DNA of 64,000 bases from Echinarachnius parma. Taxonomy: Eukaryota; Echinodermata; Echinoidea; Clypeasteroida; Echinarachniidae. Positions 1-60,260 of this stretch are shown piece by piece. The notes beneath the pieces were generated by a model that was not told where the DNA came from, ran no database searches, and saw only the letters and a list, made by a program, of their open reading frames with translations. A program made the position numbers and the translations under genes. Where the stretch lies: assembly GCA_037951105.1 (NCBI GenBank), contig JBAMJV010010094.1, forward strand, positions 1 to 64,000. The letters are read 5' to 3'. Within the stretch, counting starts at the first letter, position 1. Every line of letters starts with the position of its first letter.

Positions 1-938
1 CCTCAGGGATCTAACCTGGGACCTCTTTTGTTTCTGCTTTATGTTAATGATTTGCAATATGTAAGTGATGTTTTATCTGTACTTTTGTTTGCTGATGATA
101 CTAGCCTATAGGCCTATGTGTCGGGTAAAGATTTAGAACATTTAAATGATGTAATTAATGTAGAAATGGGTAAAGTGCAATCATGGTTTATAGCTACATG
201 TAATAGACTCCAAATTAATTACAGTAAAACATGTTATATAATATTTAGACCACATCATTTAGATATTAATGAAGATTTGATAAATATTCAATTAAATGGG
301 GTTGTAATAAAGCAAGTAAAATGTACTAAATTTATTGGTGTATTTATAGATGAAAAATTAAGTTGGAATGAGCATATTAGTTATATTTCTTTAAAGATTT
401 CGAGAATAGTTGGAGTATTAAATAATTTGAAATATATTTTGCCTTTGCGAATGTTAGTGAATATATATAATAGTATGGTTTTATCACATTTAAGTTATTG
501 TAATATTGTATGGGGCAATTGCTCATTTTATTTATTGAATAGATTGTTTTTATTACAGAAAAGGGCTGTCCGTGCGATTACTAAATCACATTATTTAGCA
601 CATACACATGATTTATTTTTGAAATTGAAAATATTAAATGTATATGACATAAATAAATTGCAGACTGCATGTTTTATGTATTCATATTTCAAAAAATTAT
701 TACCTCCCCTTTTTGATGGATATTTTAAATATAATAGGGATGTAAATGTGTATAAAACAAGGAACTCACATATAAAATATATACTCCGTTCTGTAAATAT
801 AAATTTTCTAGATCAATTATTAGTTATCAAGGTGCGATAGTGTGGAATGATTTGCCTGATGAACTCGAACAGTGTCCAACTCTAGGTAATTTTAAAAGGA
901 AGTATAAAGGATTATTGAATTATACGTTATTACAATAG
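1..938 (+). mobile_element. Non-LTR retrotransposon, 3' part of reverse transcriptase ORF, broken
   Basis: The frame from base 1 reads the conserved reverse transcriptase blocks PQGSNLGPLLFLLYVNDL and LLFADDTSL (the YADD/FADD catalytic box) of jockey/CR1-type LINEs. An in-frame TAG (109-111) follows directly, apparently from a six-base insertion after the catalytic box. The frame then runs through the thumb and C-terminal region (blocks such as KFIGVFIDEKLSW and LLQKRAVRAI) to 840. Near 805 the frame shifts, and a second frame carries the family's usual end (YQGAIVWNDLPDEL) to the stop at 936-938. The 5' part of the element lies outside the window. At least one stop and one frameshift make this copy dead. 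The exact clade is not resolved. Confidence 0.92.
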
Positions 939-5501: not shown

Positions 5502-5649
5502 TCTGTTCGTGATACAAAATCAAGCATAGGATTTAATTCAAGGGTTCCATATTTCTTTCTTGGTACTTTTGTACATAAGCACTTATCATTAGCATTGTAT
5601 CACATTACTCACTTTTGTGAGCAAAATAAAGTCCATTTTATGGCCTTAC

Positions 5650-5933
5650 CATATGGAGGCTTGACCAGCACAGACTCGGTCGACTCGCTGGGCTGTCCAA
5701 ATATACCCTGAACTCGTACTCAGACTTCTCCATGAGTCCGGTGACCGTGAAGATGGCCTCGGTGGTCGGAGTGGAGTTCACCGGCGTCCAACGAAGGGCA
5801 AGTCGCTCCTTCTTCTGGACGACGTAGCCAGTGATCGGAGAGCCACCGTCTTCTGTTGGTGGTCGCCACTTGAGGGTCACTGAGGTTGCGTTAACGGCAG
5901 TGACTTGTGGCTTGCTTGGAGCATGCGGCACAT
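5650..5933 (-). CDS. Fibronectin type III exon of a titin/twitchin-like gene, with frameshift
   Basis: On the minus strand the exon opens after a good acceptor (ttactttacag, AG at 5935-5934) in phase 1 and encodes a fibronectin type III module of the giant muscle-protein kind: DVPHAPSKPQVTAVN, SVTLKWRPPTEDGGSPITGY, VVQKKE and EYEFRV, with the conserved core Trp and Tyr. Such modules serve in sarcomeric titin, twitchin or myosin-binding proteins. After EYEFRV the frame is lost: the rest of the domain (FGQPSESTESVLVKPPY) continues in another frame to a strong donor (TATG/gtaagg, GT at 5649-5648). The exon is 284 nt, which does not fit its phase 1-1 ends; a deletion of about 19 nt, removing the usual AEN..G turn, would explain it. 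A weaker donor (AGG/gtatat, exon end 5707) could bypass the break. It is either a decaying exon or a sequence error. Confidence 0.85.
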
Positions 5934-6025
5934 CTGTAAAGTAATTAATTTGTCAAAGTAAAATTAAAATCAGATGTAAATTTGCACAATTACAATGTAA
6001 ATGAGCCTATAAAAAGCATATAATA

Positions 6026-6929: not shown

Positions 6930-7519
6930 AAGAAAAAATAAACAAAATAGTGCCCATTAAATGCAATCAGCAGACAAAGGAAAGAGCGAGCTCAAAATTT
7001 TGCATGTTAACTATGCAATTCATAAAGATATCACCCTGCCGCTTTATTAATTTTAGTCTAGCATATCTTGGAAGACTGTATGGAATGATCAAGTAAACTG
7101 CTAATGACCTTGGATATTATCCAAGAAATTGCTCATTATCATAATCTCCTACAGTTCACAATATTTTTTTTATAGAATAAATAATTTGTGGACACTTGTC
7201 AATGATTGGTTTAACTAAAAATAATTATTATTAAACAAAATAACAAACAAGCTACAAAATAAAAAATTTAACAACAGAAAAAGCAAATAAGGAACAGGGT
7301 TGTATAAAGTGAATGATAATCTTTGTTAAATTCAACTAAATTCAACTAGGACTTTCAAATTTACCTCATTATAAACGGCCAAATTAATAACAAACATTTA
7401 AATGAACGTCTGGGACTAGGCAATAGAGAACATGTATTTGTACATGTTCAGCATAGCATTTTAATCCTGTTATCTGACACAAATTCTGAGCTTATAGAAT
7501 AAAATCGTGTATTGTATTA
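6930..7519. other. Intronic, no feature seen
   Basis: A/T-rich sequence between the possible exon at 6846-6920 and the CG-1 element. No exon or clear repeat. Confidence 0.5.
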
Positions 7520-9543
7520 GGGCAATTCCAAGCAAACATTGACATAACCACTGAATTTTCAAATTCGTTGTACCATAACAAATTTGGTATCAAATGAAAG
7601 CTAAAAGATTGAACTTTCCAAAAATGCATTTTGTTTTTGAAAAAAAAAATTGTAAACTATCATTTTATTGTTAATATATAGCATAAATTAATTTTCAGTT
7701 ATTTTCACAAAACATTCCATTAAATAGTAAGCATAAAAGAACTGCGAAAAGGAGTTTTCATAAAATTTTATTTCAGTGTTGATAGGATCATTGCTTCAGT
7801 TTTTCAGATAAATATCAATTTCGTCATTTTCGCTCTTCGTTCTGCTTCAGTGACTGTCTCATTTACAGTCATCAATATGTCACGGCGTTACACTAAAAAC
7901 AGATATTTTTAATATTTCTGGAAAAATATGAATGGGAATGAAATAATTTTTTGTTTTCTCTGTATTAGCCCATAGGGCTATAATATGCATGCTGAATAGC
8001 AGCATTATCTTTTACCACTTATTAATATAATCAATATCAATTTGGTCACGGCGTTACGTTTTGTGTAACGCCGTGACGCTACCTACTGGATTCCCATTGA
8101 CATAACACAGTAGACATAATCAAATAGTGTAAGATATTTATTGGAGGTATGCTTGGGCATTGCTCATGCTATAATTATATGAATAGGGTCAGTTGATAAT
8201 GTTTCCATCTCAAAGTTACCCGAGTCATGTATGTGTATGGGTTGTACGTCCGTCTGTCTGTATGTGCATCTGTACATCAGTGTTCTTTTTTTTGCAATAT
8301 CTCAAGAATCGTTGGATGGATTTCGTTCAAACTTTGTACAATCCATGTATTTAGAGGTACGGATTATTGGATATGATTTTGGTCCATGAGGTCAAAGGTC
8401 AAAGGTCACATAGCTAACAAATATGCAAAAATTATATTATTATCAAGATAGTTTGAGAATCCTTGAAGGATAACATGATAATAATACTGGTATGCATCCA
8501 GTGAAGTATATGACCTGATTAGGGAATGGGATCATGGGAGGTCATAGGTCAACAGGTCAAAATATTGTTGTTTTTTGTTCTCACAATTAAGTTCCAGAAT
8601 CAATGTTAGAAAGAGTACTGTAGGTAAAAGACAATTTTCTGAAACTGTTTGGGGCACAGGTCAAAGGTCACTCGGATAATTACCAATTCAAAAACGAACA
8701 TTTACTAACTCTGAAATCATGTTACATGAAACAAATCACTTGCAAATATGCACTGTGCAGACCAAAAATTAAACATTTGTATGTTATTTTGAGAAACAAG
8801 GTCAAAGGTCAGATGTCAAAGGTCTCATATTTCATTGTTACATTTAAGTATGTATGTTGGTTTTAATATTTGATGGTTCCATTAACTAACTTCTGAAATA
8901 GATAAGAATTTCAATTATGTCCTAAAAGATTTTTTGATCAATAGAGGGCGCTGTGCTGCAAATTTGTGTCATGCGGATGATCATTTAATAGCATCTTGGT
9001 TATATCACCCATTCATCTAGTTCTTTATTGATTCTGGATCACTACATTAAAATTATATCATATTATTCATCTCTTTAATATCTCCCATATATATAACATG
9101 TACAATTCAGAGGTCACGGCGTTACAGTCACGGCGTTACAGTCACGGCGTTACAGTGCATAGATACATTTATGATATCATATTTACTATTAACTTTGGAT
9201 TTTTTCTACATTTTTATTTGGATGTTCTAGCTTGATGTCTAGTACAAAGAATCAATGTGACAAAAGTGCAAAATGTTCAGGTAGTTCACAGAGTTTACTT
9301 AGTTTCTTAGCATGTAAGAAACCCATGTCTTTTTGCCATCACGGTGTTACGGCAGATATTGATATTCATAATTCATAATTTATTGGGAATTTTGGTTTTC
9401 TTTCCTATTGTAAATTATTGGTAGGATAGTGGTAACAGATGCATATCAAAAGTTGGTTCTAGATATTTAGATTTTATGAGTTATTTGGACTTTCATTGTG
9501 AGAAACACCCTCTGACCGTCACGGCGTTTGCTTGGAATTGCCC
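7520..9543. mobile_element. CG-1: 2-kb inverted-repeat element with repeated GTCACGGCGTTAC
   Basis: Both ends carry the 18-bp inverted repeat GGGCAATTCCAAGCAAAC, flanked by the 4-bp duplication ATTA (7516-7519 and 9544-9547). Inside, the 13-mer GTCACGGCGTTAC occurs at about 7879, 8045, inverted at 8065, three times in tandem at 14-bp steps (9113, 9127, 9141), as a variant at 9339 and as a truncated copy abutting the right terminus (9517). No ORF is credible, so it is non-autonomous. The middle (8150-8830) holds AGGTCA-rich repeat sequence. It resembles CG-2 in its termini (GGGCA--TCCAAGC). I cannot assign a superfamily. Confidence 0.8.
8389..8408 (+). promoter_or_regulatory. Three AGGTCA half-sites in DR1 spacing, probably repeat-borne
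   Basis: AGGTCA-A-AGGTCA-A-AGGTCA matches the direct-repeat-1 element bound by RXR/HNF4-type nuclear receptors. Further AGGTCA pairs are scattered over 8400-8830. Related 'gacctttgacc' runs occur near 20950 and 28385 in other repeats, so this is more likely repeat sequence than a selected enhancer. Confidence 0.3.
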
Positions 9544-9547
9544 ATTA

Positions 9548-10182
9548 ACTAAAATACAAAAGTTTAGAATAACAAAAGTGTCAAATGTCTCTCTAATAAT
9601 TAAGCTTACTAATAATGTACCTCTACACCTTTTCGAAGACTGTCCTTCTGAAGTTCAACATACATGCGTGCCTGGATGGATGGACCTGCAAGTTGCGATG
9701 ACTGGTCTTTATGACAGATCAACGTGATGTGCCCAGAATCTCAGCATTTCTAATTTTAAAAAGAAATTTAAAAAGGAGATATTCTATTTAAATCAAAAGC
9801 CAATGCGGTATCATAATTATATTCAATATGCATAATGCAGGAAGAAATATGGGAGAGGAGAGGGGAACAAAGGGCTCTTTAGCTCCCCCAAATACCAAAA
9901 AGAGCCCTTATAAATTTACATAATTTTGAAAAACAATTCTAGCATGCTCTCTTCATGAAGGCTTGCTTGCAAAGTAACCCTTGGCAAATAAATGTAAATG
10001 GTCTGACTTGATACATATAACACAACAATGAATTATGAAATATCCAACAATGACTGTTCACAGGTAATCTCTGCTGTCTGTACCATCATCTAATATATGG
10101 AAATATCCATGTATGTTATAAATACAACATTTAAATGTATGACTGTGATGTAAATGTAAAACATTTAATTTGTAATTCTTAC
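9548..10182. other. Intronic, no feature seen
   Basis: Unique A/T-rich sequence between CG-1 and the upstream 39-nt exon. A short open frame starting inside CG-1 (9476-9727) has no recognisable content. Confidence 0.5.
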
Positions 10183-10221
10183 CAAAGATTGGGGCCAAGA
10201 AAGTGGGCTGGGAAGTTGGGC
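10183..10221 (-). CDS. Second 39-nt fibronectin-III tail exon
   Basis: Minus-strand exon after a very good acceptor (cctctctgttcatcag, AG at 10223-10222) and before a donor (CTTTG/gtaaga). It reads GPTSQPTFLAPIF, phase 1 at both ends. It has exactly the length and phases of the exon at 6446-6484 and covers the same end-of-domain strand before the Asp-initiated linker. Using both in one mRNA would give two tails in a row, so mutually exclusive use is the simplest reading; one could also be a leftover of a domain duplication. It is the first exon of this gene in transcription order within the window. The short length keeps confidence moderate. Confidence 0.55.
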
Positions 10222-10428
10222 CTGATGAACAGAGAGGTACATGATGTATGATCTTGGATCAGAACTTCCAATAGGCCAGCAATTCAGCCACTATCAAGCT
10301 TGTATTTCTGTCAAGAAAAATATACAAATGTTACACTTACAATGTTAACATTAATAAAAAATGAAATTCAAACATAGAGGAAACTGACTAGAAATATTTG
10401 AGTGATTAAAAGTGAGCAAAGAAAAATA

Positions 10429-10500
10429 GGCTTCGCCGGGAATCGAACCCGAGACCGCCGGATTGCTAGACCGGTGCTCAAACCATCAAGCCACGAAGAC
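10429..10500 (-). tRNA. tRNA-like gene, anticodon loop CTAGCAA (AGC, Ala-type), left arm
   Basis: The cloverleaf can be drawn: acceptor GTCTTCG/CGAAGCC, D-arm GCTT/GAGC, anticodon loop CTAGCAA, T-arm loop TTCGATT. The B box GGTTCGATTCC is perfect, and a T5 terminator follows (10426-10422). Oddities are a T-C mismatch at the second acceptor pair, a T-T mismatch closing the anticodon loop, G at position 14 where A is expected, and C3-G70 in place of the G3-U70 alanine identity pair. It is therefore probably a tRNA-derived mobile sequence, not a working alanine tRNA. Confidence 0.65.
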
Positions 10501-10665
10501 TTTGTATGGTGGGCGTTCCCATGAAACCCTTTTCAATGCTCGATTAGTCAGAAGCTATATAAACTGGGCCAATCCCAAGGATAATTAAATCAATTGGCCC
10601 AGTTTATATAGCTTCTGACTAATCGAGCATTGAAAAGGGTTTCATGGGAACGCCCACCATACAAA

Positions 10666-10737
10666 GTCTTCGTGGCTTGATGGTTTGAGCACCGGTCTAG
10701 CAATCCGGCGGTCTCGGGTTCGATTCCCGGCGAAGCC
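10666..10737 (+). tRNA. tRNA-like gene, anticodon loop CTAGCAA, right arm
   Basis: Same 72-nt sequence as the left-arm copy, in the opposite direction, with its T5 run at 10740-10744. The two genes diverge from the palindrome centre with their 3' ends pointing outward. It shares all the irregular positions of the left copy, so both arose from one already atypical copy. Confidence 0.65.
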
Positions 10738-10763
10738 TATTTTTCTTTGCTCACTTTTAATCA

Positions 10764-11121
10764 TTAATAAAAATGGGCAGTTATGTAGTTAAAATGTTTA
10801 TTTTCAGTCAATATCAATATCTGTAATACATAAATAGATAAATCTATACACAATCAGATGAATCAAACAAAATACAAGTTATGTTCTGCATGTCAAGTGC
10901 AATGATTAATGTTATAATTTGATTTAGTTCCAAGTAGCATAGTTCTGTAACTAAGAATGGATGGACAGATCTACAAAGAAAAAGTTAAACAAGTTAAATA
11001 TCTAATGTCCAATGTACAGATGTTGTAGAAGACATTCCATGCCCAATAAACTTCCTTTAACTTAAATCAATTTTTGTGCAGGCATGGCTTAAAAAGTAGT
11101 CCCTGATAAAGTGATATATGT
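10764..11121. other. No feature seen
   Basis: A/T-rich sequence between the tRNA palindrome and the left end of CG-3. Confidence 0.5.
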
Positions 11122-14100
11122 GGGTCAGATTTTTGAAATATGCACTTTTGGCCATTTCCAGACCTTGAGCGCTTCTATAATTTGCTGTGTCTCGCCATTA
11201 ACTCCGATATACCTGTTTTTGGTCTCATATTAAATAGTATTATTAAGGCTTTCAGAAAATATATAGTTGTATATCATTTTAAACATTCGGTTTCATGCCA
11301 CAGGACCTCAAAGGTGGAAAAATAGCATAAATTGTAATTTTCCACAAAATAATGAATTTTTAAACCTGATAAAAAAAAAAATTAATCAACTTTAAAGGCA
11401 TTAATGTCTATATTCTCTATCTTACATTTCTGGAGCATGTATCACATAAGAATTGGCGGAAGAGCGGCATTGATATGATCTCAGGGTACATTTCAATAGG
11501 AAAGGCCATGATAAGTGAACGTCCGTGAACATACATTAAAATACATTAAAATCCATACAACCAAAATTCTACTTAGTTGTCAAAACAAAAACTATTTCCA
11601 AAACTAAGGGTTGAACCCACTGAACACATTCTACAACAATTGTTGGCTAACTACTCCTGCTCGCGGAGTAACATTTTTTTGTATGAAATTATACTGGATT
11701 TCGTCACGGACGTTCTGTCGTCTGTTATCATCACTGCTATAAGCGAATTGCATCCTAGTCATCAATTGCTGGGTCAGTCTGATGGACTCATAGTAGGGCC
11801 ACAATATTTTGCCTATTTGAATACTATCTATCAAATGCAATGTTTGGTTTGGGCCAAAAATTGATCTTCGTGAACGTCCGTGATGAAAACGAACGTCCGG
11901 CAAGAGTAGACCCAATTACGAATCTGAGGCTGCTTATCTGCACGTAGACACTGGTACAGCAATTTTATCGGGCAAGCAGCTAACCAAGAAGCTATATCAA
12001 GCATTTTCGAAGCCTTTTGACAACTATTTATAATACGGACGTTCGCTCGGACGTTCGCTCATGAACATTGTTCTAATAATGTTACCATGTTAAACGCTCA
12101 CGGCAAGTTGATACCGTTTGATGTTGTTAGTACATTGTTATGTCTCTCATATCCCAGATAGATTTATTTCCTGCAAGTCATTTAACTGTAACAAACTTAT
12201 GAAATGTTGTGCTCACGGACGTTCGTTCGTCATTTATTGCCCCAAAAATCTTAGTAAAAGTTCAAGTACTGGTACAATTTTTTGACAGCAGGTGCCCCTT
12301 GTGTGTGCCTTTCGACCCAGGTCATTGCCAACCACACATGAATATATGTTGATTTTTAGTCACCATCACGGAGGTTCGTTTTACATTTGATCAACTTGCT
12401 TAGATATTATATTTACTTCCACCTGTGCAGCGTGGACATTGTATTATAGGAAGTCAAACCCCAAGATTATGATTATGCACAGTCGCAGGCCTACAAGCGA
12501 AAGAAAGCTGTTCAAAACATAAAAAAGGGGGTATATGGCGCAGTAACAAGTAACAACATTGCAACCGAAGGTCTGTGTGGAAACTTTTGCCCCACCCTCT
12601 GCAAAACTTGAGACTGTTGGCCCCTCCTCTGCTGCAGGCTTTGAGACTGTTTTCTCATCTGCCTGTCGGATTTAAGTCCAACTAAATGGCTGTATGGCGC
12701 AAGATTGGTGTAATATTTATGCATTATTTTGATGACTTCATCGTAATAATACTTATAATATTGTCTGTTTTGTTATTTCTTGATATATCAAACATATTGT
12801 TTTTGCTAGAATCATTATAATATTGTACAACTAAATTTTAGCTCGCGCAATATTTATAATAAACCATTCAAGGTTAGCCTTGTTCTTAATTATAATTGAA
12901 ACATTGAAACTGGTTGGAGGTTAACAATTAGGAAACAAGATGTGGGTCAGGAAACATCGGAAACTATCAACATGATTATTTGCAAGATTTAACTTTGAAA
13001 TATGTTATAAAACAATTTATAATCTCTGCAAATTAGATTTAAATGTTAAACACGTTTAGTTACTTTAGTTAGCCCTTAAAATGATTGAATTTATTATATA
13101 TGCGATTGTTATTACATTTTATTAAGATATTCTTTCTAAATAAAATGCAATAACAAACATGTATAATATGTTTAGCGTATAATATTTAGCGTAATGGTTT
13201 CTATGTCTAATATTTCTTTATGGGCAGGTCCAAGCTAATGTCCCCCTTGATGGTGAAAATTCATCTTCATTTTAGCTTTACAAATTTGGTATCATTTCAA
13301 AGCTAAAAGTCTGAAGTTTAGATTTTTAGTACAGAAATTTGCATAATATGCATATTTAACGAGTAGTGAGCATCTAATTTGCATATTTCAAATATTAGCG
13401 TGACGTACGGGACATTGTATTTCTATTTTTAATTTTATCAATCAAGCTTTAATTTCATATATGGGGACTAGTAAAACTAATCACTAGCAATAGTTGACCA
13501 AATTTTTAAGTGTCAAAATTAATTAATTATGCTAATAAGGGCGTGTCCAAACTACAATGTCCCGTACGTCACAAAAATGAACACCTTTTTTTATATTTCA
13601 GTATGAAACACTGAATTTTTTTCTTTCATATTTTGTGAAGTTCTAATTTATCATACTCTTGACTGGCTAGCTAAGTTTTATGAAAACAGCATTTTTCGTT
13701 TTGATTTTATTAGCTAATTAAGACATGTGACGTACGGGACAAAAGTGTGACGTACGGGAAATTTTCAGTGTTAAAGCAATGGCAAGCCAGGTGAAAATTA
13801 TTTGTTTTGTGTTTTACCACTGATTATCATAATAATTCTTGCTTAGATACTCTTAAAATTTCAGAATAAATAGGTCTTACCTTTAGGAGTTACCTCTAAA
13901 AGTAATTACATAATTACCACATCATACTTCGCGTTATAGCTACATACTGATGAAAATGTGTCTGGAAGGGGAAATTTGAAATACCTCATAATTACCTTTA
14001 AATAATTATCTAAAATACTAGACAGTCAATTTGAGTAGGGAAACTGCATGTCAATGAAGGAAATATAGTATTACATTGGTTCAGTACAACGAGACCTTCC

Positions 14101-16696
14101 AAACAGGTTCAAAAACTGCAAGAAAGCGCTAAAAAGGCACAAAATAGTTTTAGTTTTTCTTCTAAATAGTCCCATGTGTAGGATTTCATGTAAGTTGCCA
14201 AATTTATGATGATTCTGTTTAATTTTCTCATATTCAAATCTTTTTTGTCAATATTGAAAGTAATTTACATCAGATAGATGTATCCCACATCTTTTGAAGC
14301 CAAATCAAATATCAATTCTTAATTAGTAATTAGCATAATTAATGCAAATTATCGGATTTCAGAGCTTCAATTTGTTAAAGTCTTATTATAATGTATTGCG
14401 GAAGCTGTTTTTGAGTTTTAAATCATCACAATATTGAATAAATACAATAAGAACAAATATATTGCAAAATGGACCCAAAGATTTAAAAATAAAAGCAGGA
14501 AAATGACAAATAAAACATGAGGGAAAAATGTCCCGTACGTCACATGTCCCGTACGTCACGCGCATACCTATTTTCTTTCATTAATTATCATGGGATAAAA
14601 GGTCATAATTTTTTTTTTTTTTTGCAGTGCGTATATTAATGGTTACTAAATGCATATATCAGGAATAAGTTGTTATCTGCCATGTAGATTCAGAGAGTTT
14701 TCAAAATACACATTTTTTTTTTAAAGTCATAATTTCTCTGGTCCCGTACGTCACGCTGCATATTTACTAGCATAATTAAATTTTAACTAGCATTTTGAAT
14801 ATTTTTTTTTGCATTTTGGGAAGGGACTACAAGTAGCTTTCCAAAGCATCAAAAAGATTCCAGATCATAGCTCCTTCCTTTGAATAATATTCAATTGAAA
14901 GCTGTGAATGTCCCGTACGTCACAAGTCAAATAGCTTGGACCTGCCCTTATACAAAACATAATATACATGTATGATCTAAAAAGGCATTCTTTATGTATT
15001 TATTTAAGAAATAAGTTTTACGTGTATATTATTTACTTTGCTCATGGCTTTTGGTACCCTCAGTTTATTTCATGTTTTGTGAAAATTTATGGCTAGAAAC
15101 GATAAATATATATGTATTTTCAATTAATAAACCATCTATACGAATTGAATCGAAATACAACATACACAATCCAAAATAACTTTTATATATGGGTCTCCCA
15201 AAGTCAAAATACATCTCAAATATATATGGCAAGGTTTTGCACATATAAAAACGTGTGATATGCATATATTAACAAATTATGTTGGCACTTACATTTATTT
15301 CTGTAAGGAATTGACTCGAGATTGGACACTTGGGTACCACTATAGGCAATTCGAGAACGTCCGTGAAATTAATACGAACGTCCGTGACATTAAGACTCAT
15401 GTGAGAAACTGTATTCTGGTGACAGGAAAATGGCCTTTATTTTGATTAAACATGTTATTTATGATTGCGGAAATGTTGTAAAATCATTTATTTACAGAAG
15501 TATGGTGGCATTTCTGTTATAGAGTGCCCAACCGAGGAAAGCCGGTGTAAAATTAGGGGTTACGATTTCCACAGGTCCACTAAGAGTGATAGTTAAGTAG
15601 CAGACATTTCATTATAATCAATTCAGATAGCTAAAATCATATCAACTGATAAATTTATGTTTTATATTGGTCTGGAGCCTAGAGGAGATTCAAATAAATG
15701 TTGTCATCAATTTCTGTAAGACTGTTCAGGCAGAGAACGTCTGTGAAATGTATGCGAACGTCCGTGAAATTGCAATTAAAAACAATAATAGTAAGAAAGA
15801 GGGACCAGGCGACTTGGAAAATGCTACTTTTATATCTGACTAGGATGTATGCATAGTCTATGGCTTAAATATAATAGGAATAGATAAAGTATTATCATCA
15901 TATTGTTCTATAAGCATTAAGTCAATTCCAACCAATAATAGGACTCATTATAACGACCAGGTCCATGTAAAAACCAAACTATTTAAACAGATTTATTGCA
16001 ATTTTCAAGTTTGTTTGTATAATAACCCCGTTTTAAAGCCATTTGCGAAGAATAGAAACTCTTTTGGATGAGATCAGATCATTCTGCCAACATTCTTGTT
16101 TCTAGCGAACGTCCGTGAGCGATATGGGAACGTCCGTGATGAAAACTATACTCTCTTTGGTCATGTAATTATGCAATATTATGATCTAGACAGCAATTTA
16201 TCCTATTAACATGCACATTGAAGTGTGTGGTACGGGAATACGAGCGTATATAGATGCGTTTCTAAAAAATGCGGCTAAAGTAAAGCAAAGGCTCTGAATA
16301 ACACATTAATTTTAAACAAACATAACAATTCAGTAAAAGTTTGGATGTTTGTATTTTCTATTTGGCAAATAAAACACAATCCTCGTTTGGCATACAGAGA
16401 GAAGCAAGTCTTAGAGGTAAATTGTCAAAATATAAGCTGTATATGACAGAAAATAAATTAGATATATGGGTTCTAAATCTATATCTACATAATCCCTCAC
16501 GGACGTTCGCCTTTTGGAGATGGGTTACTTCAACAGTGAATAAAAACGGAACCACATGGAGTTTCCCAGTATAATGGGGTACGCCTGGAAGCTACGATTC
16601 CATGCTTTCACATTAGATTGATGTCTTTAAATTTAAAAAATAAATTGAATATTACCCTGTTGGGGTCGAAAAGTGCACTTTTCAAAATTCTGACCC
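11122..16696. mobile_element. CG-3: 5.6-kb element with paired GAACGTCCGTGA motifs
   Basis: The ends form an imperfect inverted repeat of about 32 bp starting GGGTCAGA(T/A)TTTTGAAA and including TGCACTTTT. The 4-bp flanks are ATGT (11118-11121) and ATAT (16697-16700), a target duplication with one change. GAACGTCCGTGA or its complement occurs about 15 times: near 11518, 11704, 11872, 11891, 12035, 12047, 12213, 12366 (variant), 15355, 15376, 15735, 15756, 16107, 16128 and 16497. Three pairs are exactly 21 bp apart. CG-2 is nested inside (13222-14947); without it CG-3 is about 3.8 kb. Short open frames inside carry no recognisable transposase. Confidence 0.75.
13222..14947. mobile_element. CG-2: 1.7-kb element with repeated GTGACGTACGGGAC
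   Basis: The termini are GGGCAGGTCCAAGCTA inverted, with a TTAT duplication (13218-13221 and 14948-14951). The 14-mer GTGACGTACGGGAC or its complement is at 13400, 13559, 13727, 13747, 14530, 14546, 14741 and 14910, the last just inside the right terminus. Element CG-3 resumes on both sides, so CG-2 inserted later. No coding capacity. Confidence 0.82.
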
Positions 16697-16723
16697 ATAT
16701 ATTTCATTGTTTTCCCTGCTTAC

Positions 16724-17330: not shown

Positions 17331-17771
17331 GCCAAGTTAATCAATTACACTTTACATCACCTAACAATTAACATTGTGTATTACTAGGCCCAACTGCATA
17401 CTATACCATTATAACATATAAACCTAACCCTTGTTTAGTGGCTATACTCGTGGCATATAAATTTATAATAATATTAAAATTATTAATTATTATTATATTC
17501 CACATACTAAGAATCTTGCTCTACGATTGGTCAAAAGTTAATCACGTGATGAAATATAGTTTCGCCCATCGTTACACTCTGTAGATATCTTGGGTGAAAG
17601 TGCGTTGCACTCACTAGATAAAAAGTACTATCTTCACTCCGCGGTTGCATTGAATTGAATACCAATAAGTGGCGCGATAACTCTATGCGCGCGAATTACA
17701 AATTTAATTGTATTCGTTGTGCATACGGTATACGTGTAGTACACTGCATACACTATGCACTGTACATCAGA
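17331..17771. other. No feature seen
   Basis: A/T-rich, then a short CpG-containing stretch (17640-17700) ahead of the pseudogene. No clear promoter element. Confidence 0.4.
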
Positions 17772-17865
17772 GGCGTCGATCAGCTGTTCGGAAAACACAA
17801 TGCATTGGCCGGGGCGAGCATTGTTTGTGAACAATTGCATTGTGTTTTCCGAACAGATCGACGCC
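17772..17865. repeat. Strong hairpin upstream of the Crypton-derived ORF
   Basis: About 30-bp arms containing TTCGGAAAACACAATGCA and its complement are separated by about 31 bp. The only differences are small indels (AGC in the left arm, one base in the right). It ends 57 bp before the ATG at 17923. It may be a short inserted element or the end of the transposon. Confidence 0.8.
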
Positions 17866-17922
17866 CCTGTTGTAGTATCGTACATACACTGTTTGCATGC
17901 TCGTTCTGTGTACTCTACTAAA

Positions 17923-18512
17923 ATGGCGGCCACAAACATAAGGTTTGAGCTTTTGGATGAGGATGAAATGGACACGTTTTTACTGGAGAGTGAAAGTAAA
18001 AATACAAAGCGACAACTTAAGTTCAGCCTGAAAGTGTTCCAAGATTATTGCGATGCGGGAATCATACATTTTGACAAACTGTCTGACATGGACTTGAAAT
18101 CGCTAGACCAAGTGTTGGGGAGATTGTATGCTGGTGTGAAATCGCGAAATGGTGAGTCATACAGTAAGAAATCTCTACAAGCTTTGAGGTATGTGGTCTG
18201 CAGAGACATTTTTTGAATTTGCGAGACATAGACATTATCAAGGATACCAACTTTGCGAAACCTGGTCGAGTGTTCAAAACTGTTCTTCGGAAACTCAAGG
18301 AAGAGGGGAAAGCCAATGTAAAACGGCCTGTCAGTGAAACCGGCATGAACACGATTCAAGACAGTCTAGTCTATAGACCAGGTCCAGGACTCTCCTTGTG
18401 GACTACAACGTAAAGTTTTCAATTTCATCGACATTATGACCAATTGTGCGATCAGGGGTGAAAAGAATTTGCATGTTGAACTGTTATGGAATTGTCATGG
18501 AATAACATATTG
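17923..18512 (+). pseudogene. Crypton-derived (KIAA1958/ZMYM/QRICH1-like) domain gene, frameshifted
   Basis: From ATG 17923 (context aaaATGG) the frame gives LLDEDEMDTFLLESESKNTK, then LKFSLKVFQDY, LDQVLGRLYAGVKSRNGESY and SLQALRY. This is the N-terminal core-binding region shared by KIAA1958, ZMYM2-4 and QRICH1, genes derived from Crypton tyrosine-recombinase transposons. Near 18191 a 2-bp insertion shifts the frame; the next frame continues with LQRHFLNLRDIDIIKDTNFA and VLRKLKEEGKAN. A second shift near 18365-18388 leads to DSPCGLQRKVFNFIDI and CAIRGEKNLHVELLW, ending at a consensus donor (TATTG/gtaagt, GT at 18513). Two frameshifts make it a pseudogene as read. The catalytic recombinase part is not seen. 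Confidence 0.75.
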
Positions 18513-20109: not shown

Positions 20110-20409
20110 ATCCCAAATTAAGAAAATAACATCGAAAAACCGTGTTTCCCCCTAAGGCGCAGTTTTATAGCATTCAACATATAAGAGCATCATTTTGTCA
20201 TGTGAATATCTCGCTCTGTTGACATATAGATATAGGGGTATAGTATAATCGACTCATATTACGCCCTCAGGGTGTTGTTTTGGTGCAATCAAAGTAGCAC
20301 ATGATAACGTTAGGGGGAAAGGTATGTTTCCCCCAAGTTAACGACAAATTCCCCTTAACGTGCTGTTTTATAGCACGCATATTCGCCTTAAGGCTACTTC
20401 TAAGCTTAT
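20110..20409 (+). mobile_element. R4 repeat family, copy 1
   Basis: A block with landmarks 'gtgtttccccctaaggcgca', 'gtatagtataatcgactcat' and 'attcgcc...taagctta'. Copies: 20110-20409 (+), 21441-21821 (-) and 34281-34658 (+). This one lacks the outermost 80 bp seen in the others. Confidence 0.85.
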
Positions 20410-21440
20410 TATATATTTTTTACGTTATAGTAGACTGAACGAATTATATAATTGTATAATCTGTATTACAAATCGGACACGGCTAATAGTACTGATACTA
20501 AATAATTATAATCAGTAACCGCGCTCTTAAAGTATATTACACAATATACTCGAGATTACTAATAATCAGTAACCGCGCGCTTAAAGTATATTACACAATA
20601 TACTCGAGATTACTAATTCCGACGTTTTTTTTACTGTGACTATTACAAAACAATTGCTGGAACCTTGGACAATTATTCGGTATGCCTTTATAAGCCCCCA
20701 GTGTGAATTTCAGGTGAATTAAAGAATTTTTCGCGAAAATATTTAACATTTAAAAAAACCTGTCTCGGCCTTTACATTTTTTTTTTTTTGAGAATGCAGA
20801 AGTCACTAAATGAGACATATAGAAATGATTAGCAACTCATGTTTAACGGAAATATATATAATTTATTGCATAATACAAGTAATTGGCTGAGAAAATAACT
20901 TATCTTATAACACATACATTTGCCAGATATAAAATCACGCAAATGGAAACCTGTGACATGTGACCTTTGATCTTTGACCAAATGACCTTAAAATCACAAC
21001 CCTTCATCTATCCCCCTAGATACATGAATATACCGAGTTTGGTGTCAATTGGTCATTTGGTTCTTGAGATATGGCAAAAAGAAGATTTTCCAGCCAATTT
21101 TAACGATTTTCTCAAGTGGATAATACAGAAAACGGCCATAACTTTTTTTTAAATGATTGGAATTGGCTCAAATTCACAGAGGATGTTTACTATGATGTAC
21201 TCTTAATTTTAAATTTTTTTTCTTTCAAAATCGGACTTTCCCATAATTGTTTTATGTTGCAGCAAACTAAATAGGAGTATGTCTTCCTAGCACGTTACCA
21301 GCCACTTGCATTTTCTTGAAAATTCGATGTCCAGATTTCCAAAAATGACCATTTTGACCAGGGTCAATCAGGGTTCGGGAGGGATGCTTACGTGCATCAT
21401 ATTTCACTAACCTGACAAAAAAAAATTTAATATATAGGTT
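20410..21440. other. Spacer between inverted R4 copies; 68-bp tandem duplication
   Basis: At about 20505-20620 a unit with 'agtatattacacaatatact' (itself palindromic) is present twice. At 20940-21120 there is dispersed-repeat text with 'gacctttgatctttgacc'. No exon. Confidence 0.6.
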
Positions 21441-21894
21441 ATAAGCTTAGAAGACGCCTTAGGGCGAATATGCGTGCTATAAAACAGCACGTTAGGGGGA
21501 ATGTGTCGTTAAGGGGAAACATACCTTTCGCCCTAACGAATTGACCACTGTTTTATAGCCCTTCCTGCTAGTTTTATCATGTGCTACTTTGTTTGCATCA
21601 AAACAACACCATAAGGCGTAATATGAGTCGATTATACTATACCCCATGTCAACAGAAGGAGATATCCACATGAAAAAAATGATGCTCTTATATGTTGAAT
21701 GCTATAAAACTGCGCCTTAGGGGGAAACAGGGTTTTTCGATGTTATTTTCTTAATTTGGGATTATGTCTAGATTATCTGACTTGAAACATCATTTTGAAA
21801 CCAAAATACTCCTTACTGCACAATACAAAAAAGGGTAATGCTGACTTATTGGCAGTCATGGAGAAATCCCCTTAACTTACACTTATCTTTTTCA
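21441..21894 (-). mobile_element. R4 repeat family, copy 2, flanked by an 18-bp direct repeat
   Basis: Inverted relative to copies 1 and 3. The 18-mer TTAATATATAGGTTATAA stands at 21427-21444 and again at 21895-21912, which looks like a long target-site duplication bounding a unit of about 450 bp. The inner 21441-21821 matches copy 3. Confidence 0.75.
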
Positions 21895-27993: not shown

Positions 27994-28905
27994 AGGGATA
28001 GTTGAGTTTTGGTAGAGAGGGCGCTACATACAATTATTTTTTGTGAGATAATGAAAAACTGAGTGTAAAATTTGAAAGAGCATAATATTTTAATGCAGAA
28101 TAAACTTTATTTGATCAGAATCGGTTCAGAAATGGCTGAAATATCCATAAACATGACCATTTATAATAAATGTGGGGCCCCACACTCATACGATAATTTT
28201 GAACCAGCCGTAAAAAAAAAAAACTAGATGGATCTTCGACTGCGTGCAGTCGAAAATGATGCCTCCGCCATTACGCAATTTATCAAGCCCAAATCAACAT
28301 GTACATTGAATTCTGTCAACTCAATTTTGATGGTACTCTGTCTTTTAGATCTTGACGTATCACAATTATGAGCTATTAGTGACCTTGACCTTTGACCTCA
28401 TGACCCCCAAAATCTAATCAGTTTATTGTCCCCCCAAGATACATACATATACCAAGTTTGGTCAGAATCTGTCAATCCGTTCTTGAGATAACGCGATTAC
28501 GAGAACGGGACGTACAGACGGACATACGTACGGACGGACGGACAGACAACCCAAAAACATAATGCATCCGGCAACTTCGTTACGGAGGCATAAAAATGCT
28601 TCCTCTTTTAAACAAGTTACAAAATAGCTATTTAAAGGGTGGTTGATTACCTCGCTATCTAATCACTATTTCATCGAAACATCACATGCACAATAATTGA
28701 GTCAAAATGGTTCAAACCGATGGGTGTTTAGAGAGCGCCCTCTTGAGTTTTAACGGCTCTTTTGAATGATAACAGGATCTTTACTAAGTCATTTGTAATG
28801 TTGTATTCCTTTCGAGTTATATTAGTTTGTAATGTAACTATGCAGGTTTTGGTTACTAAAATTCAGTTTGACCAAAACTGTACTCTCCTTACCAGAACTC
28901 AACTA
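27994..28905 (+). mobile_element. TTAA-1 family element with a nested insertion; empty site known
   Basis: Starts AGGGATAGTTGAGTTTTGG after TTAA (27990-27993) and ends GAACTCAACTA; the last bases TCCCT and the right TTAA are lost. The flanks align with the uninterrupted sequence 'cttaagaacgagcc' of copy A (3760-3773), so copy A is the pre-insertion site. Confidence 0.88.
28224..28590. mobile_element. Element nested in TTAA-1 (GCCTCCG termini)
   Basis: Inner ends are ATGCCTCCGCCATTACG and CGTTACGGAGGCAT. It opens with the perfect hairpin TTCGACTGC-GT-GCAGTCGAA (28235-28254). It includes 'ccttgacctttgacctc' and a GGAC/GGAC(A/C)GAC patch (28500-28545). The TTAA-1 copy at 34769 lacks this block, confirming it as an insertion. 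Related text is at 20940-21120 and 8240-8410. Confidence 0.75.
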
Positions 28906-34768: not shown

Positions 34769-35309
34769 AGGGATAGTTGAGTTTTGGTAGAGAGGGCGCT
34801 ACACAAAATAAATTTTTGTGAGATAATAAGAGCATACATTGTAATGGCAGAATAAACTTTATTTGATCAAAATCGGTTCAGAAACGGCTGAAATATCCAT
34901 AAACATAACCATTTGTAATAAATGTGGGGCCCCACAAGTATTTCATAATTTTGAACCAGCCGTTAAAATTCGTTTTAAAATGCTTCCTCTTTTCAAAAAT
35001 TTTCAAAAGAGGTTTTTAGATAGTTGTTGATTATCTCTCTATCTAATCACTATTTCAACAAAACATCACATGCACAATATTTTATTTAAAATGGTTTAAA
35101 CAAATTCGTTTTTTGAAAGCGCCCTCTTTCGGTAAACAACTCTTTTTGAATGATAACAGGCTTTTTACTTAGTCGTTTGTAATGTTTTTATTCCTTTTGA
35201 GCATGGTGGAGTTATAACTATTAGTTTGTAATGTAATGGTGCAGGTTTTGGTTACTAAAATTCAGTTTGACCAAAACTGTACTCTCTTTACCAGAACTCA
35301 ACTATCCCT
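34769..35309 (+). mobile_element. TTAA-1 family element, full length reference copy
   Basis: AGGGATAGTTGAGTTTTGG ... CCAGAACTCAACTATCCCT with TTAA on both sides (34765-34768 and 35310-35313). 541 bp with the central 'gtggggccccac' word. Non-coding. Confidence 0.9.
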
Positions 35310-44899: not shown

Positions 44900-45513
44900 A
44901 GGGATCTAGTTACTTTGTTGTGCATTAAATGACGAAGGGTTTATAATGTGTATTTTCTGTGATCTGATGTACAGGGTGGCCCAGAAATAACGGAACGGGG
45001 TACTTGCCATACTAAAGACTCATGATGCCCGCCATACTGCATCGAGTAACGATCAACCGTGCGCCATTGTGAGTGTGCGTTCAGCCGTGTATAGAGAAGA
45101 AGGGGTACTAACAATGGTGCACGCATTGTACGTTACAAGTTGCTATGACGGGCATCATGTGTCTTCATTATAGCAAGCACCCCGTTCCGTTATTTCTGGG
45201 CCACCCTGTATATGTCCACTGTGTGATGCGTGGAAATTCCATGGTAAATTTATGTCATTATGACCGAGTAATGAGCGAAAGTGCAAAGTGGTATTCACTA
45301 ACTCATTGCGCTGACTTTGTACACAGTTTGAAATTCTCCGCCAGAGAATTTCAAATCCGAATACTTCAATCACACATAATAATAAATATGCAAATGTCTT
45401 TCTCATACAGCGAAGAAGATATTTGAAAACACCGAAACCTGTTCCATGCTTCTATTGGTAATACGAATATAGCGAGTAAAATTTGTTGATTTGGACAATG
45501 TTACTAGATCCCT
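44900..45513 (+). mobile_element. TTAA-3 family element, copy 2
   Basis: AGGGATCTAGTTACTTTG ... GTTACTAGATCCCT between TTAA sites (44896-44899, 45514-45517). It is interrupted by the MITE at 44972-45208. The flanking 85 bp ('tatcaatgatca.gaacgaca') are shared before and after, so copies 1 and 2 lie in a tandem duplication. Confidence 0.87.
44972..45208. mobile_element. Tc1/mariner-like MITE
   Basis: Terminal inverted repeat CAGGGTGGCCCAGAAATAAC at both ends, extending on to CGGAACGGGG. TA on each side (44970-44971 and 45209-45210). The 'CAGGGTG.CCCA' start and TA target are typical of the Tc1/mariner group. The inner arms also pair ('atgatgcccg'/'cgggcatcat'). 237 bp, non-coding. Confidence 0.85.
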
Positions 45514-59559: not shown

Positions 59560-60260
59560 CCAGAACAAGTACGCTCGCTGCTAAGATGCTGTGATCGTCA
59601 AATCATGTTGGTTTGAACAGCCAGCTACTGTGAAGAAAACAAACTGAAACTGCTGGAGGAAACGGAGAAATCATTGCCAAAACCCGTGAATGTAGTTTTA
59701 AAGTGACACGGTCGTTGAAAATCCCCTTGGTTGAAATATTTGCATGCACTCCTTGAAACTGTTTGCCAAAAATACGTTAGTATCGTAATTATGCTATTAT
59801 GACTAGCTGCTGTGAGGAAAACAAATGGAAACTGCTTGAGGAAATTATTGCCAAACCCGTGAACGTAGATTTAAAGGTACACGGTCGTTGACAAATCCCC
59901 TTGGTTAAAATATTACCTTTGCATGGACCACCTTGAAAACGATTCACAGTCACATGCTATGATCGTAATTATGTTGTTATGAACAGCCAGCTACTGTGAA
60001 GATAACACATTGAAGCCCCTTGAGGAAACAGAGACAGAGACTATTGCCAAACCCGTGAACGTATGTTTAAAGGTACGCGGTCGTTGAAAAACCCATCGGT
60101 TGAAGTTTGTGCATCCTCCTATGAAACGGTTTACCATAAAATGCGCTGACTGGTTATGTCGTTATGAACAACTAGGTATTGTGAAGACTACAATATCGAA
60201 ATCGCCAACCCGTGAACGTAGATGTTAAAGATAGATGGTTGTTGAAAATCTCCTTGGTTT
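59560..60260. repeat. Four tandem units of about 165-190 bp
   Basis: 'cacggtcgttgaaaatcccc' at about 59707 recurs as variants near 59880, 60078 and 60235, each preceded by 'cccgtgaacgta' and followed by 'ttggttgaaatat'. The units also share 'gctactgtgaagaaaac'. Confidence 0.85.

What the first reader, a model, noticed from the sequence alone, without database searches (positions are those of the whole stretch)
7520..16696. A trio of large non-coding elements, each carrying its own repeated CpG word
Seen: CG-1 (7520-9543), CG-2 (13222-14947) and CG-3 (11122-16696) all have GGG...CCC inverted termini, 4-bp A/T-rich flanking duplications (ATTA; TTAT; ATGT/ATAT) and no ORF. Each is studded with a private 12-14-mer: GTCACGGCGTTAC, GTGACGTACGGGAC and GAACGTCCGTGA. 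On one strand the three words fit T(C/G)ACG(G/T)(A)CG, so they look like related, diverged binding sites. CG-1 and CG-2 also share termini GGGCA--TCCAAGC. Inference: one transposon superfamily in which a transposase or silencing factor and its sites have co-diverged. CpG inside every word also invites a methylation-sensitive binding model.
Basis: partly seen in the sequence, partly recalled or inferred. Interest (0 to 1): 0.75.

Follow-up and report, generated by a model that had tools for sequence, protein, structure and literature searches.

The report
Jumping genes with private address words
Three gene-less jumping DNA elements in what is probably an animal genome each carry many copies of their own short CpG-rich word, and related families keep the places of the words but change the word throughout, as expected if each family has its own DNA-binding protein.

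Summary
CG-1, CG-2 and CG-3 are ORF-less DNA transposons with GGG…CCC inverted ends and 4-bp target duplications; CG-2 sits inside CG-3. The unnamed host assembly (1.2 Gb) holds many copies. Four-bp duplications are exact in 10 of 11 independent CG-1 copies and 16 of 17 two-ended CG-2 copies. Empty sites were read for CG-2 and CG-3. Each word is private to its element in the window and in great excess genome-wide: 3121, 2020 and 3582 exact copies against 7, 13 and 39 for the reversed control.

A search on the shared ends alone, excluding CG-1 and CG-2, found a fourth family (CG-4; one copy read) with a fourth word, GTAACGCGCGGGAC. In CG-1, CG-2 and CG-4 four sites lie at nearly the same coordinates from one end (14–27, 194, 389–391, 405–406), each holding that family's own word, partly decayed. 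The words align as GT(A/G)ACG-N1–2-CG(G/T)GAC.

Best reading: binding sites for a family-specific DNA-binding protein, probably from an unseen autonomous partner, changing in concert with it. No partner, protein or binding datum was found. CG-3's kinship is weaker. CpG decay argues against the words being shielded from methylation.

The parts
7520..9543 (+). CG-1, non-autonomous DNA transposon, 2024 bp
   Evidence: ends and duplication; independent genomic copies 10 of 11 with exact 4-bp duplication:
7516..7519 (.). CG-1 left target duplication ATTA
9544..9547 (.). CG-1 right target duplication ATTA
7520..7537 (+). CG-1 left inverted end, 18 bp perfect (GGGCAATTCCAAGCAAAC)
9526..9543 (-). CG-1 right inverted end
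7520..7617 (+). 98-bp left end shared with CG-2 (69%, E 1e-10)
7879..7891 (+). CG-1 word GTCACGGCGTTAC
8045..8057 (+). CG-1 word
8065..8077 (-). CG-1 word
9113..9125 (+). CG-1 word (14-bp tandem array)
9127..9139 (+). CG-1 word (14-bp tandem array)
9141..9153 (+). CG-1 word (14-bp tandem array)
9338..9350 (+). CG-1 word, 2 mismatches (right-end site 194)
9518..9530 (+). CG-1 word, 2 mismatches, running into the right inverted end
13222..14947 (+). CG-2, non-autonomous DNA transposon, 1726 bp, nested in CG-3
   Evidence: 16 of 17 two-ended copies (20 fetched) with exact 4-bp duplication; empty site:
13218..13221 (.). CG-2 left target duplication TTAT
14948..14951 (.). CG-2 right target duplication TTAT
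13222..13237 (+). CG-2 left inverted end, 16 bp perfect (GGGCAGGTCCAAGCTA)
14932..14947 (-). CG-2 right inverted end
13400..13413 (+). CG-2 word GTGACGTACGGGAC
13559..13572 (-). CG-2 word
13727..13740 (+). CG-2 word
13747..13760 (+). CG-2 word, 1 mismatch (perfect in the majority of 16 copies)
14530..14543 (-). CG-2 word
14546..14559 (-). CG-2 word
14741..14754 (-). CG-2 word (right-end site 194)
14910..14923 (-). CG-2 word (right-end site 25)
11122..16696 (+). CG-3, non-autonomous DNA transposon, about 3.85 kb plus the nested CG-2
   Evidence: empty site in 18 of 20 unit copies; complete copy L095 with ATAT/ATAT:
11118..11121 (.). CG-3 left target duplication ATGT (ATAT in the empty site)
16697..16700 (.). 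CG-3 right target duplication ATAT
11122..11149 (+). CG-3 left inverted end (28 bp, 89%)
16669..16696 (-). CG-3 right inverted end
11517..11528 (+). CG-3 word GAACGTCCGTGA
11704..11715 (-). CG-3 word
11872..11883 (+). CG-3 word
11891..11902 (+). CG-3 word, 2 mismatches
12033..12044 (-). CG-3 word, 2 mismatches
12045..12056 (-). CG-3 word, 2 mismatches
12213..12224 (-). CG-3 word
12366..12377 (-). CG-3 word, 1 mismatch
15355..15366 (+). CG-3 word, pair 21 bp apart
15376..15387 (+). CG-3 word, pair
15735..15746 (+). CG-3 word, 1 mismatch (CpG transition; perfect in L095)
15756..15767 (+). CG-3 word, pair
16107..16118 (+). CG-3 word, pair
16128..16139 (+). CG-3 word, pair
16497..16508 (-). CG-3 word

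Best explanation
CG-1, CG-2, CG-3 and CG-4 (found here elsewhere in the genome) are families of non-autonomous cut-and-paste DNA transposons that make 4-bp target duplications. Shown: they are mobile, multi-copy, without detectable genes in the copies read, and carry a private CpG word at many places. CG-1, CG-2 and CG-4 have related ends and share the coordinates of four word sites, each family with its own word there (some sites decayed). Inferred: the words are binding sites for a sequence-specific protein made by a still unseen autonomous partner (the transposase's own DNA-binding domain or a helper like TNPA). Many sites at both ends let the protein tell its own elements from the rest of the genome and assemble the ends. 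Because one protein reads all sites, a change of its preference forces all sites to change together, so each lineage ends up with its own key. Each word can be read as two half-sites (GT(A/G)ACG and CG(G/T)GAC) around a 1-2 bp spacer that varies between families; the dyad symmetry itself is only weakly supported.
For: Mobility: exact 4-bp duplications in 10 of 11 independent CG-1 and 16 of 17 two-ended CG-2 copies; empty sites; an independent CG-2 insertion in another CG-3. Privacy. Genome-wide excess over reversed control: 3121/7, 2020/13, 3582/39, 248/2. All 8 words perfect in the majority of 16 CG-2 copies. CG-4, found by ends alone (377 ends against 13 control), has its own word, and 62 of 72 listed words lie inside a listed CG-4 end, mostly at recurring offsets. 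Shared coordinates from one end: CG-1 14,194,391,405; CG-2 25,194,390,406; CG-4 27,194,389,405. The exact CG-4 word, three changes from CG-2's (G3A, T7C, A8G), is listed 14, 11 and 3 times in the offset bins of sites 27, 194 and 389; site 405 was seen only in a decayed form in the one copy read. Outside words CG-2 and CG-4 are 52% identical there. Word similarity beats shuffles that keep CG units: 0 of 3000 for all four summed, P 0.004 for the original three. CpG is depleted outside words (o/e 0.34, 0.36, 0.65) and concentrated in them.
Against: No autonomous copy, transposase or DNA-binding protein was found: three long candidates (L082, L097, L098) were ordinary copies with other inserts. 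No binding data. CG-3's ends do not align with the others above chance. Taken singly, three of six word pairs are no closer than CG-preserving shuffles (CG-1/CG-2 P 0.23, CG-2/CG-3 0.12, CG-3/CG-4 0.45). Only one CG-4 copy was read; in it three of six clear word sites are decayed, as are two of seven in the CG-1 majority. The CG-1 copy L082 lacks an exact 4-bp duplication (CGGT/GGTA), as does the CG-2 copy L069. A generalised paired-site pattern found nothing, though it did not match CG-4 either.
Confidence: 0.7

Rival explanations
1. The words are targets of an element-encoded anti-silencing factor, as YAGTATTAY is for VANC21 in Arabidopsis VANDAL transposons, and not of the transposase. The factor strips methylation from its own family and co-diverges with its motif.
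For: Many short motifs in non-coding DNA, motif spread partly by tandem duplication (14-bp array in CG-1; pairs about 371 bp apart in CG-3), family-specific motifs, a host that seems to methylate the elements (CpG transitions). The VANDAL precedent was read in passages of PMC5735166.
Against: VANDAL21 carries its VANC gene and its motifs sit in introns and upstream regions; here no gene was found. Word CpGs decay by transitions at about the rate of other CpGs (CG-1 0.032 inside vs 0.034 outside; CG-2 0.016 vs 0.028, P 0.26), so no lasting demethylation at the words is visible.
Confidence: 0.15
2. The words are binding sites of a host transcription factor (for instance a bZIP, whose sites contain ACGT-type half-sites; recalled) that the elements exploit as promoters or enhancers.
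For: Half-site, quasi-palindromic look of the words (palindrome P 0.035-0.054 for the first three together); sites at both ends.
Against: A host factor would favour one shared word; each family has a different 12-14-bp word, and related families carry different words at the same sites. The words' concentration in elements (62 of 72 listed CG-4 words inside a listed end) gives no sign of wide host use.
Confidence: 0.08
3. The repeated words are only leftovers of tandem duplication and gene conversion inside the elements, with no bound protein.
For: Some words sit in tandem arrays and spacing in CG-3 is regular, about 171 and 187 bp.
Against: CG-1, CG-2 and CG-4 keep word sites at the same coordinates across flanks only 45-52% identical; 8 of 8 are perfect in the CG-2 majority; CpGs are kept inside words and depleted outside.
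Confidence: 0.05

Closest known systems
CACTA transposons En/Spm and soybean Tgm (passages of PMC2613891)
   Same: Short inverted ends plus many subterminal copies of a short motif; two subfamilies in one species with diverged motifs, suggested to be paralleled by diverged TNPA-like binding proteins; GC-rich, possibly methylation-sensitive motif.
   Different: Here ends are GGG...CCC, not CACTA; 4-bp duplication, not 3; no binding protein gene known; word sites keep their coordinates across families; probably an animal host (inferred).
Arabidopsis VANDAL transposons with VANC proteins (passages of PMC5735166; abstract of PMC10398659)
   Same: Family-specific short motifs, repeated in non-coding DNA, held to co-evolve with an element-encoded binding protein.
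   Different: Plant elements (MULE type, recalled); motifs largely in tandem repeats rather than at fixed sites; anti-silencing shown there, nothing shown here.
Galileo (P superfamily), THAP sites in long ends (passages of PMC3688188); Hermes (hAT) subterminal repeats read by BED domains (passages of PMC10368747)
   Same: Several internal binding sites away from the cut ends are held to give the transposase its specificity; two Hermes sites form a quasi-palindrome.
   Different: Hermes has an 8-bp target site; three THAP sites were described in Galileo; I saw no set of families with switched words in the passages read.
Sola2 elements (passages of PMC3627910)
   Same: 4-bp duplications, 12-21-bp inverted ends.
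   Different: Sola2 duplications there are A/T-only (AWWT, ATAT, AAAT, ATTT); here mixed; no Sola transposase was sought or found.

Membership tests
Cut-and-paste DNA transposon (non-autonomous) | Terminal inverted repeats and target duplication of fixed length in independent copies | tested here: met
   CG-1 10 of 11 (L082 has CGGT/GGTA); CG-2 16 of 17 two-ended, of 20 fetched, and L097; CG-3 1 complete copy of 4 fetched plus empty site in 18 of 20 unit copies; CG-4 1 of 1
One superfamily by the Repbase rule (same duplication length, first 11 bases alike with at most 1 mismatch; PMC4455052) | CG-1, CG-2, CG-4 joined | tested here: met
   CG-4 differs from CG-1 and from CG-2 by 1 of 11 bases each; CG-1 and CG-2 differ directly by 2, so they are joined only through CG-4 (sequences)
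One superfamily by the Repbase rule | CG-3 joined to the others | tested here: not met
   GGGTCAGATTT against GGGCAATTCCA has 7 mismatches of 11; ends not alignable above chance
Sola2 | 4-bp A/T-rich (AWWT-type) duplication | tested here: not met
   4 bp is met, A/T-only is not: AAGG, ACTG, CGCT, CCAA, TGGT and others
Sola2 | Sola2 transposase in the autonomous partner | not tested
   no partner found and no Sola2 query at hand
piggyBac / Kolobok / Sola3 | TTAA duplication (TTAA for Kolobok and piggyBac: PMC9587614; Sola3 recalled) | tested here: not met
   duplications vary in sequence
CACTA/EnSpm | CACTA ends | tested here: not met
   ends are GGGCA or GGGTC
CACTA/EnSpm | element-encoded binding protein for the subterminal motif | not testable with these tools
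   no autonomous element found
VANDAL/VANC anti-silencing | VANC-type gene whose product binds the motif and removes methylation | not testable with these tools
   no gene found; CpG decay at words gives no hint of protection

The most novel reading that the evidence does not exclude
A lock-and-key transposon system, probably in an animal: families descended from one ancestor keep a constellation of about eight protein-binding sites at fixed coordinates for so long that the DNA between them is nearly randomised, yet change the 13-14-letter word at all sites together, so that sibling families living in the same genome (and nested in other elements of the kind) stop sharing their binding protein. 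Word divergence would then be a speciation mechanism for transposons.
Probability: 0.5. Interest if true: 0.75.

Novelty: new variant of a known kind. Interest (0 to 1): 0.6.

Why it matters
Co-divergence of transposon proteins and their internal sites has been proposed for plant CACTA and VANDAL elements (passages of PMC2613891 and PMC5735166), but the VANDAL sites are largely in fast-changing tandem repeats, hard to compare place by place. Here families in one genome can be aligned site by site, with positions kept and words different, in CG-1 and CG-2 copies about 0.5-2% from their majority sequence. That gives a natural series of keys (GTAACG-C-CGTGAC, GTGACG-TA-CGGGAC, GTAACG-CG-CGGGAC, and less surely GAACG-TC-CGTGA) for asking how a DNA-binding protein and all its sites change together. 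For annotation it yields four families and a rule (ends plus constellation) for finding more.

Tried and rejected
Autonomous partner: three long copies picked from end or word spacing (C1212 = L082, C122 = L097, C228 = L098) were ordinary copies with other inserts, one holding a Crypton-like gene. Four copies without a right end in reach (L046, L075, L078, L081) showed no ORF above 126 aa in the fetched 3.7 kb; two more CG-1 copies without a right end by my criterion (L049, L051) were not checked for ORFs.

Outside relatives: phages and three viral-contig scans gave no match. One scan each of prokaryote genomes and viral contigs gave 4 and 9 short pattern matches. Comparing the elements with these loci found only 22- and 24-bp matches at the pattern itself, which I take for chance; the one looked at (L010) resembles coding DNA by eye. 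The papers held contain none of six strings (both orientations of the CG-1 word, the CG-2 and CG-3 words, the CG-1 end, an internal motif) except one unrelated hit to the CG-3 word, seen as a listing.

A subterminal motif TTTGGTNTCANATNAAA seemed to join CG-3 to the others, but it was defined after the fact and independent tests did not support it (P 0.2 for the sum); dropped. A further family by a paired-site pattern: 0 matches, but the pattern did not match CG-4 either, so it says little. Sola2 and TTAA superfamilies: rejected on duplications.

Nucleosome-length spacing: CG-3 sites recur at about 171 bp (left, P 0.001) and 187 bp (right, P 0.007), but tandem duplication explains this as well, so no claim is made.

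Stronger conservation of words after insertion: not shown (pooled P 0.09 non-CpG, 0.29 CpG; CG-2 non-CpG alone P 0.05).

Not done: a test for hybrid or other words (GTHACGNHCGGGAC) did not complete.


Full report
WHAT IS THERE. The window is one stretch (contig C10073) of a 1.2-Gb assembly in 14,790 contigs. It is a eukaryotic genome, probably an invertebrate animal; that is my inference from its intron-bearing style and repeats, no call names it. CG-1 (7520-9543) has 18-bp perfect inverted ends and an ATTA duplication. CG-2 (13222-14947) has 16-bp perfect ends and TTAT. CG-3 (11122-16696) has 28-bp ends at 89%. CG-2 is nested in CG-3. The largest stop-to-stop frames wholly inside an element are under 100 aa. 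Six of the 20 of 60 aa or more were scanned against Pfam, none from CG-2, and none passed a cut-off.

THE WORDS. At up to 2 mismatches the CG-1, CG-2 and CG-3 words occur 8, 8 and 15 times in their own element and never in the other two. Shuffles of the window expect 0.52, 0.03 and 1.85 for the whole window (CG-3's sixteenth hit, with 2 mismatches, lies outside). Among locally repeated non-simple 9-mers, parts of the CG-3, CG-1 and CG-2 words rank 1st, 2nd and 10th. CpG outside the words is depleted: observed/expected 0.34 (CG-1), 0.36 (CG-2), 0.65 (CG-3), against 0.80 for the window. Of the CpGs, 19 of 34 (CG-1) and 19 of 30 (CG-2) sit in or at the edge of words that make up about 5-6.5% of the element.

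THEY ARE MOBILE. In the host assembly the left 161 bp of CG-1 had 894 first-look candidates and of CG-2 335; the right 177 bp of CG-3 had 336. Only the best 40 of each were scored, at 97-100% identity. Of 20 CG-2 copies fetched, 17 had both ends in reach and 16 of these have exact duplications of at least 4 bp, on different contigs; L069 has none. The 20 CG-1 copies fetched first were misleading: all 17 with both ends share the same flanks, because CG-1 lies in a larger repeated unit. From a pattern that excluded the unit's left flank (684 matches against 0 control, 100 listed) I picked ten pairs of ends about 1.6-2.05 kb apart; 10 of 10 have exact 4-bp duplications. An eleventh, longer pair (L082) has CGGT/GGTA, not an exact 4-bp match, so 10 of 11. 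For CG-3 the unit gives the empty site: 18 of 20 fetched unit copies read GTGATATATATATTTCA where the window has CG-3, so 4 bp were duplicated if the element is exactly GGG to CCC. One of four CG-3 copies fetched was complete (L095, 3850 bp, ATAT on both sides, 16 words); the other three have inserts and their left ends were out of reach. Three of those four show the empty site of CG-2 at the join (in the fourth the 21-base key did not match, but the alignment runs through), and another CG-3 (L094) has CG-2 inserted elsewhere. Next to CG-2 duplications the following base is A in 14 of 17 sites and the base two before is G in 10 of 17 (P 3e-5 and 3e-4), a mild TGT-NNNN-ACA preference; CG-1 shows A there in only 5 of 11.

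THE WORDS BELONG TO THE ELEMENTS. Exact copies in the genome against the reversed pattern: CG-1 3121 to 7, CG-2 2020 to 13, CG-3 3582 to 39. In the first 100 places listed, 94 of the CG-1 words and 95 of the CG-2 words have a neighbour within 2.2 kb (my count; whether each cluster is a bounded element was not checked).

A PREDICTION TESTED. I searched for the shared end with the two variable letters set so that CG-1 and CG-2 could not match: 377 matches against 13 control, 91 of the 100 listed reading GGGCAAGTCCAAGC. One element with both ends (L099, 1548 bp, AACA/AACA, 19-bp perfect ends) was read. It has a fourth repeated word, GTAACGCGCGGGAC, three times exactly, plus copies at 27, 405 and 1182 whose 1-2 changes are all C>T or G>A at CpGs. 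That word occurs 248 times in the genome against 2 for the control. Of 72 listed words on the contigs covered by the end list, 62 lie inside a listed CG-4 end, 48 of them in the five offset bins 20-29 (14), 190-199 (11), 1010-1019 (10), 1030-1039 (6) and 1200-1209 (7); the other 10 of 72 had no listed end in reach.

SAME PLACES, DIFFERENT WORDS. Read from one end, the sites lie at 14, 194, 391, 405 (CG-1), 25, 194, 390, 406 (CG-2) and 27, 194, 389, 405 (CG-4). In the CG-1 majority the sites at 14 (cut short by the inverted end) and 194 are 2 and 1 letters off the word. Random placement gives the CG-1/CG-2 coincidence with P about 0.001, at a tolerance set to include the observed 11-bp difference. 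Aligned, CG-2 and CG-4 are 52% identical outside words in the gap-free columns of the first 430 bp, and all four sites fall in the same columns. There CG-4 reads its own word (194, 389) or that word with CpG decay (27, 405); in other copies the exact word is listed 14 times in the bin of site 27, 11 at 194, 3 at 389, and never at 405. At site 194 CG-1 shows its (one-letter-off) word in the same columns; at the other three sites it is offset in that alignment. Read this way the words are GTAACG-C-CGTGAC, GTGACG-TA-CGGGAC and GTAACG-CG-CGGGAC, and CG-3's is GAACG-TC-CGTGA. As a set of four they are more alike than CG-preserving shuffles (0 of 3000). Single pairs: CG-1/CG-4 P 0.0005, CG-1/CG-3 0.004, CG-2/CG-4 0.018, CG-2/CG-3 0.12, CG-1/CG-2 0.23, CG-3/CG-4 0.45.

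KINSHIP. CG-1 and CG-2 left ends align from base 1 over 98 bp (69%, E 1e-10). By Repbase's rule of 11 terminal bases with at most one mismatch (passage of PMC4455052) CG-4 joins both, while CG-1 and CG-2 differ by two. CG-3 fails the rule and its end does not align above chance, so its place in the family rests on GGG, 4 bp and the word.

METHYLATION. Copies differ from their majority sequence by about 0.5-2%. At CpGs outside words 13 of 13 (CG-1, ten copies plus the window) and 9 of 11 (CG-2, 16 copies) substitutions are the methylation type; inside words 10 of 11 and 8 of 9. CpG rates inside and outside do not differ significantly; at other bases CG-2 words change slightly less (P 0.05), not confirmed when pooled (P 0.09). 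The elements are thus probably methylated in the germline and the words are not spared after insertion. That CpGs nevertheless fill the words of the source elements points to selection on the mobile lineage (inference). Whether methylation helps or blocks binding is open; CpG methylation enhances Sleeping Beauty and transposons of its end structure and lowers others (passage of PMC7827188).

HOW IT LIKELY WORKS. A protein made by a complete relative binds the many internal sites and brings the ends together, as subterminal repeats do for Spm TNPA (passages of PMC2613891), and as proposed for Hermes BED domains (PMC10368747) and Galileo THAP domains (PMC3688188). Shown: sites, positions, privacy, different words at the same places. 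Inferred: the protein, its origin, the concerted change as a process, and the role in transposition. The main rival is an anti-silencing factor of the VANC kind (PMC5735166). I found no autonomous copy.

VERDICT. Mechanistically this is a new variant of a known kind (subterminal binding sites that co-diverge with a protein), notable for the place-by-place comparison it allows.

Noticed in passing
window 10403-10763: Two head-to-head tRNA-Ala (AGC) genes in a palindrome with 171-nt arms, 100% complementary, 19 nt apart; similar inverted matches recur in unit copies.
   Followed up: partly
window about 6020 to about 16,800 (without CG-3): Large repeated unit containing CG-1 and the tRNA palindrome, matched in 20 other contigs at about 97-99.9% identity; its outer bounds were not found. 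Two contigs (C1047, C5) also carry CG-1, CG-2 and CG-3 ends in the window's order.
   Followed up: partly
window 17740-18216; L082 6454-7683: Frames that look like Crypton-type tyrosine recombinase genes (label from my own reading; Pfam gave only a weak Phage_int_SAM_1 match, E 0.06, for the first; the second was not scanned). The L082 one sits inside a CG-1 copy.
   Followed up: no
window 8213-8415, 20958-21085, 28371-28577: A separate repeat with AGGTCAAAGGTCA-like motifs, inside the window's CG-1 and elsewhere in the window, and several times in L082.
   Followed up: no
window 34770-35308 and 44901-45512: Short elements with GGGATAGTTGAG / GGGATCTAGT inverted ends flanked by TTTAAA, so possibly TTAA-duplicating MITEs.
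   Followed up: no
window 20120-21752: Set of long inverted matches spanning about 1.6 kb with CCCTAAGGCG-type words.
   Followed up: no
window 59681-60220: Four diverged units roughly 160-200 bp apart sharing AACCCGTGAA(C/T)GTA, another local CpG-bearing word; no bounding ends were sought beyond.
   Followed up: no
window 112-840: Frame resembling the C-terminal part of a non-LTR reverse transcriptase (my reading; no Pfam hit).
   Followed up: no
window 5638-5952: Fibronectin type III domain frame, E 3e-15, probably part of a host-like gene beside the repeated unit.
   Followed up: no
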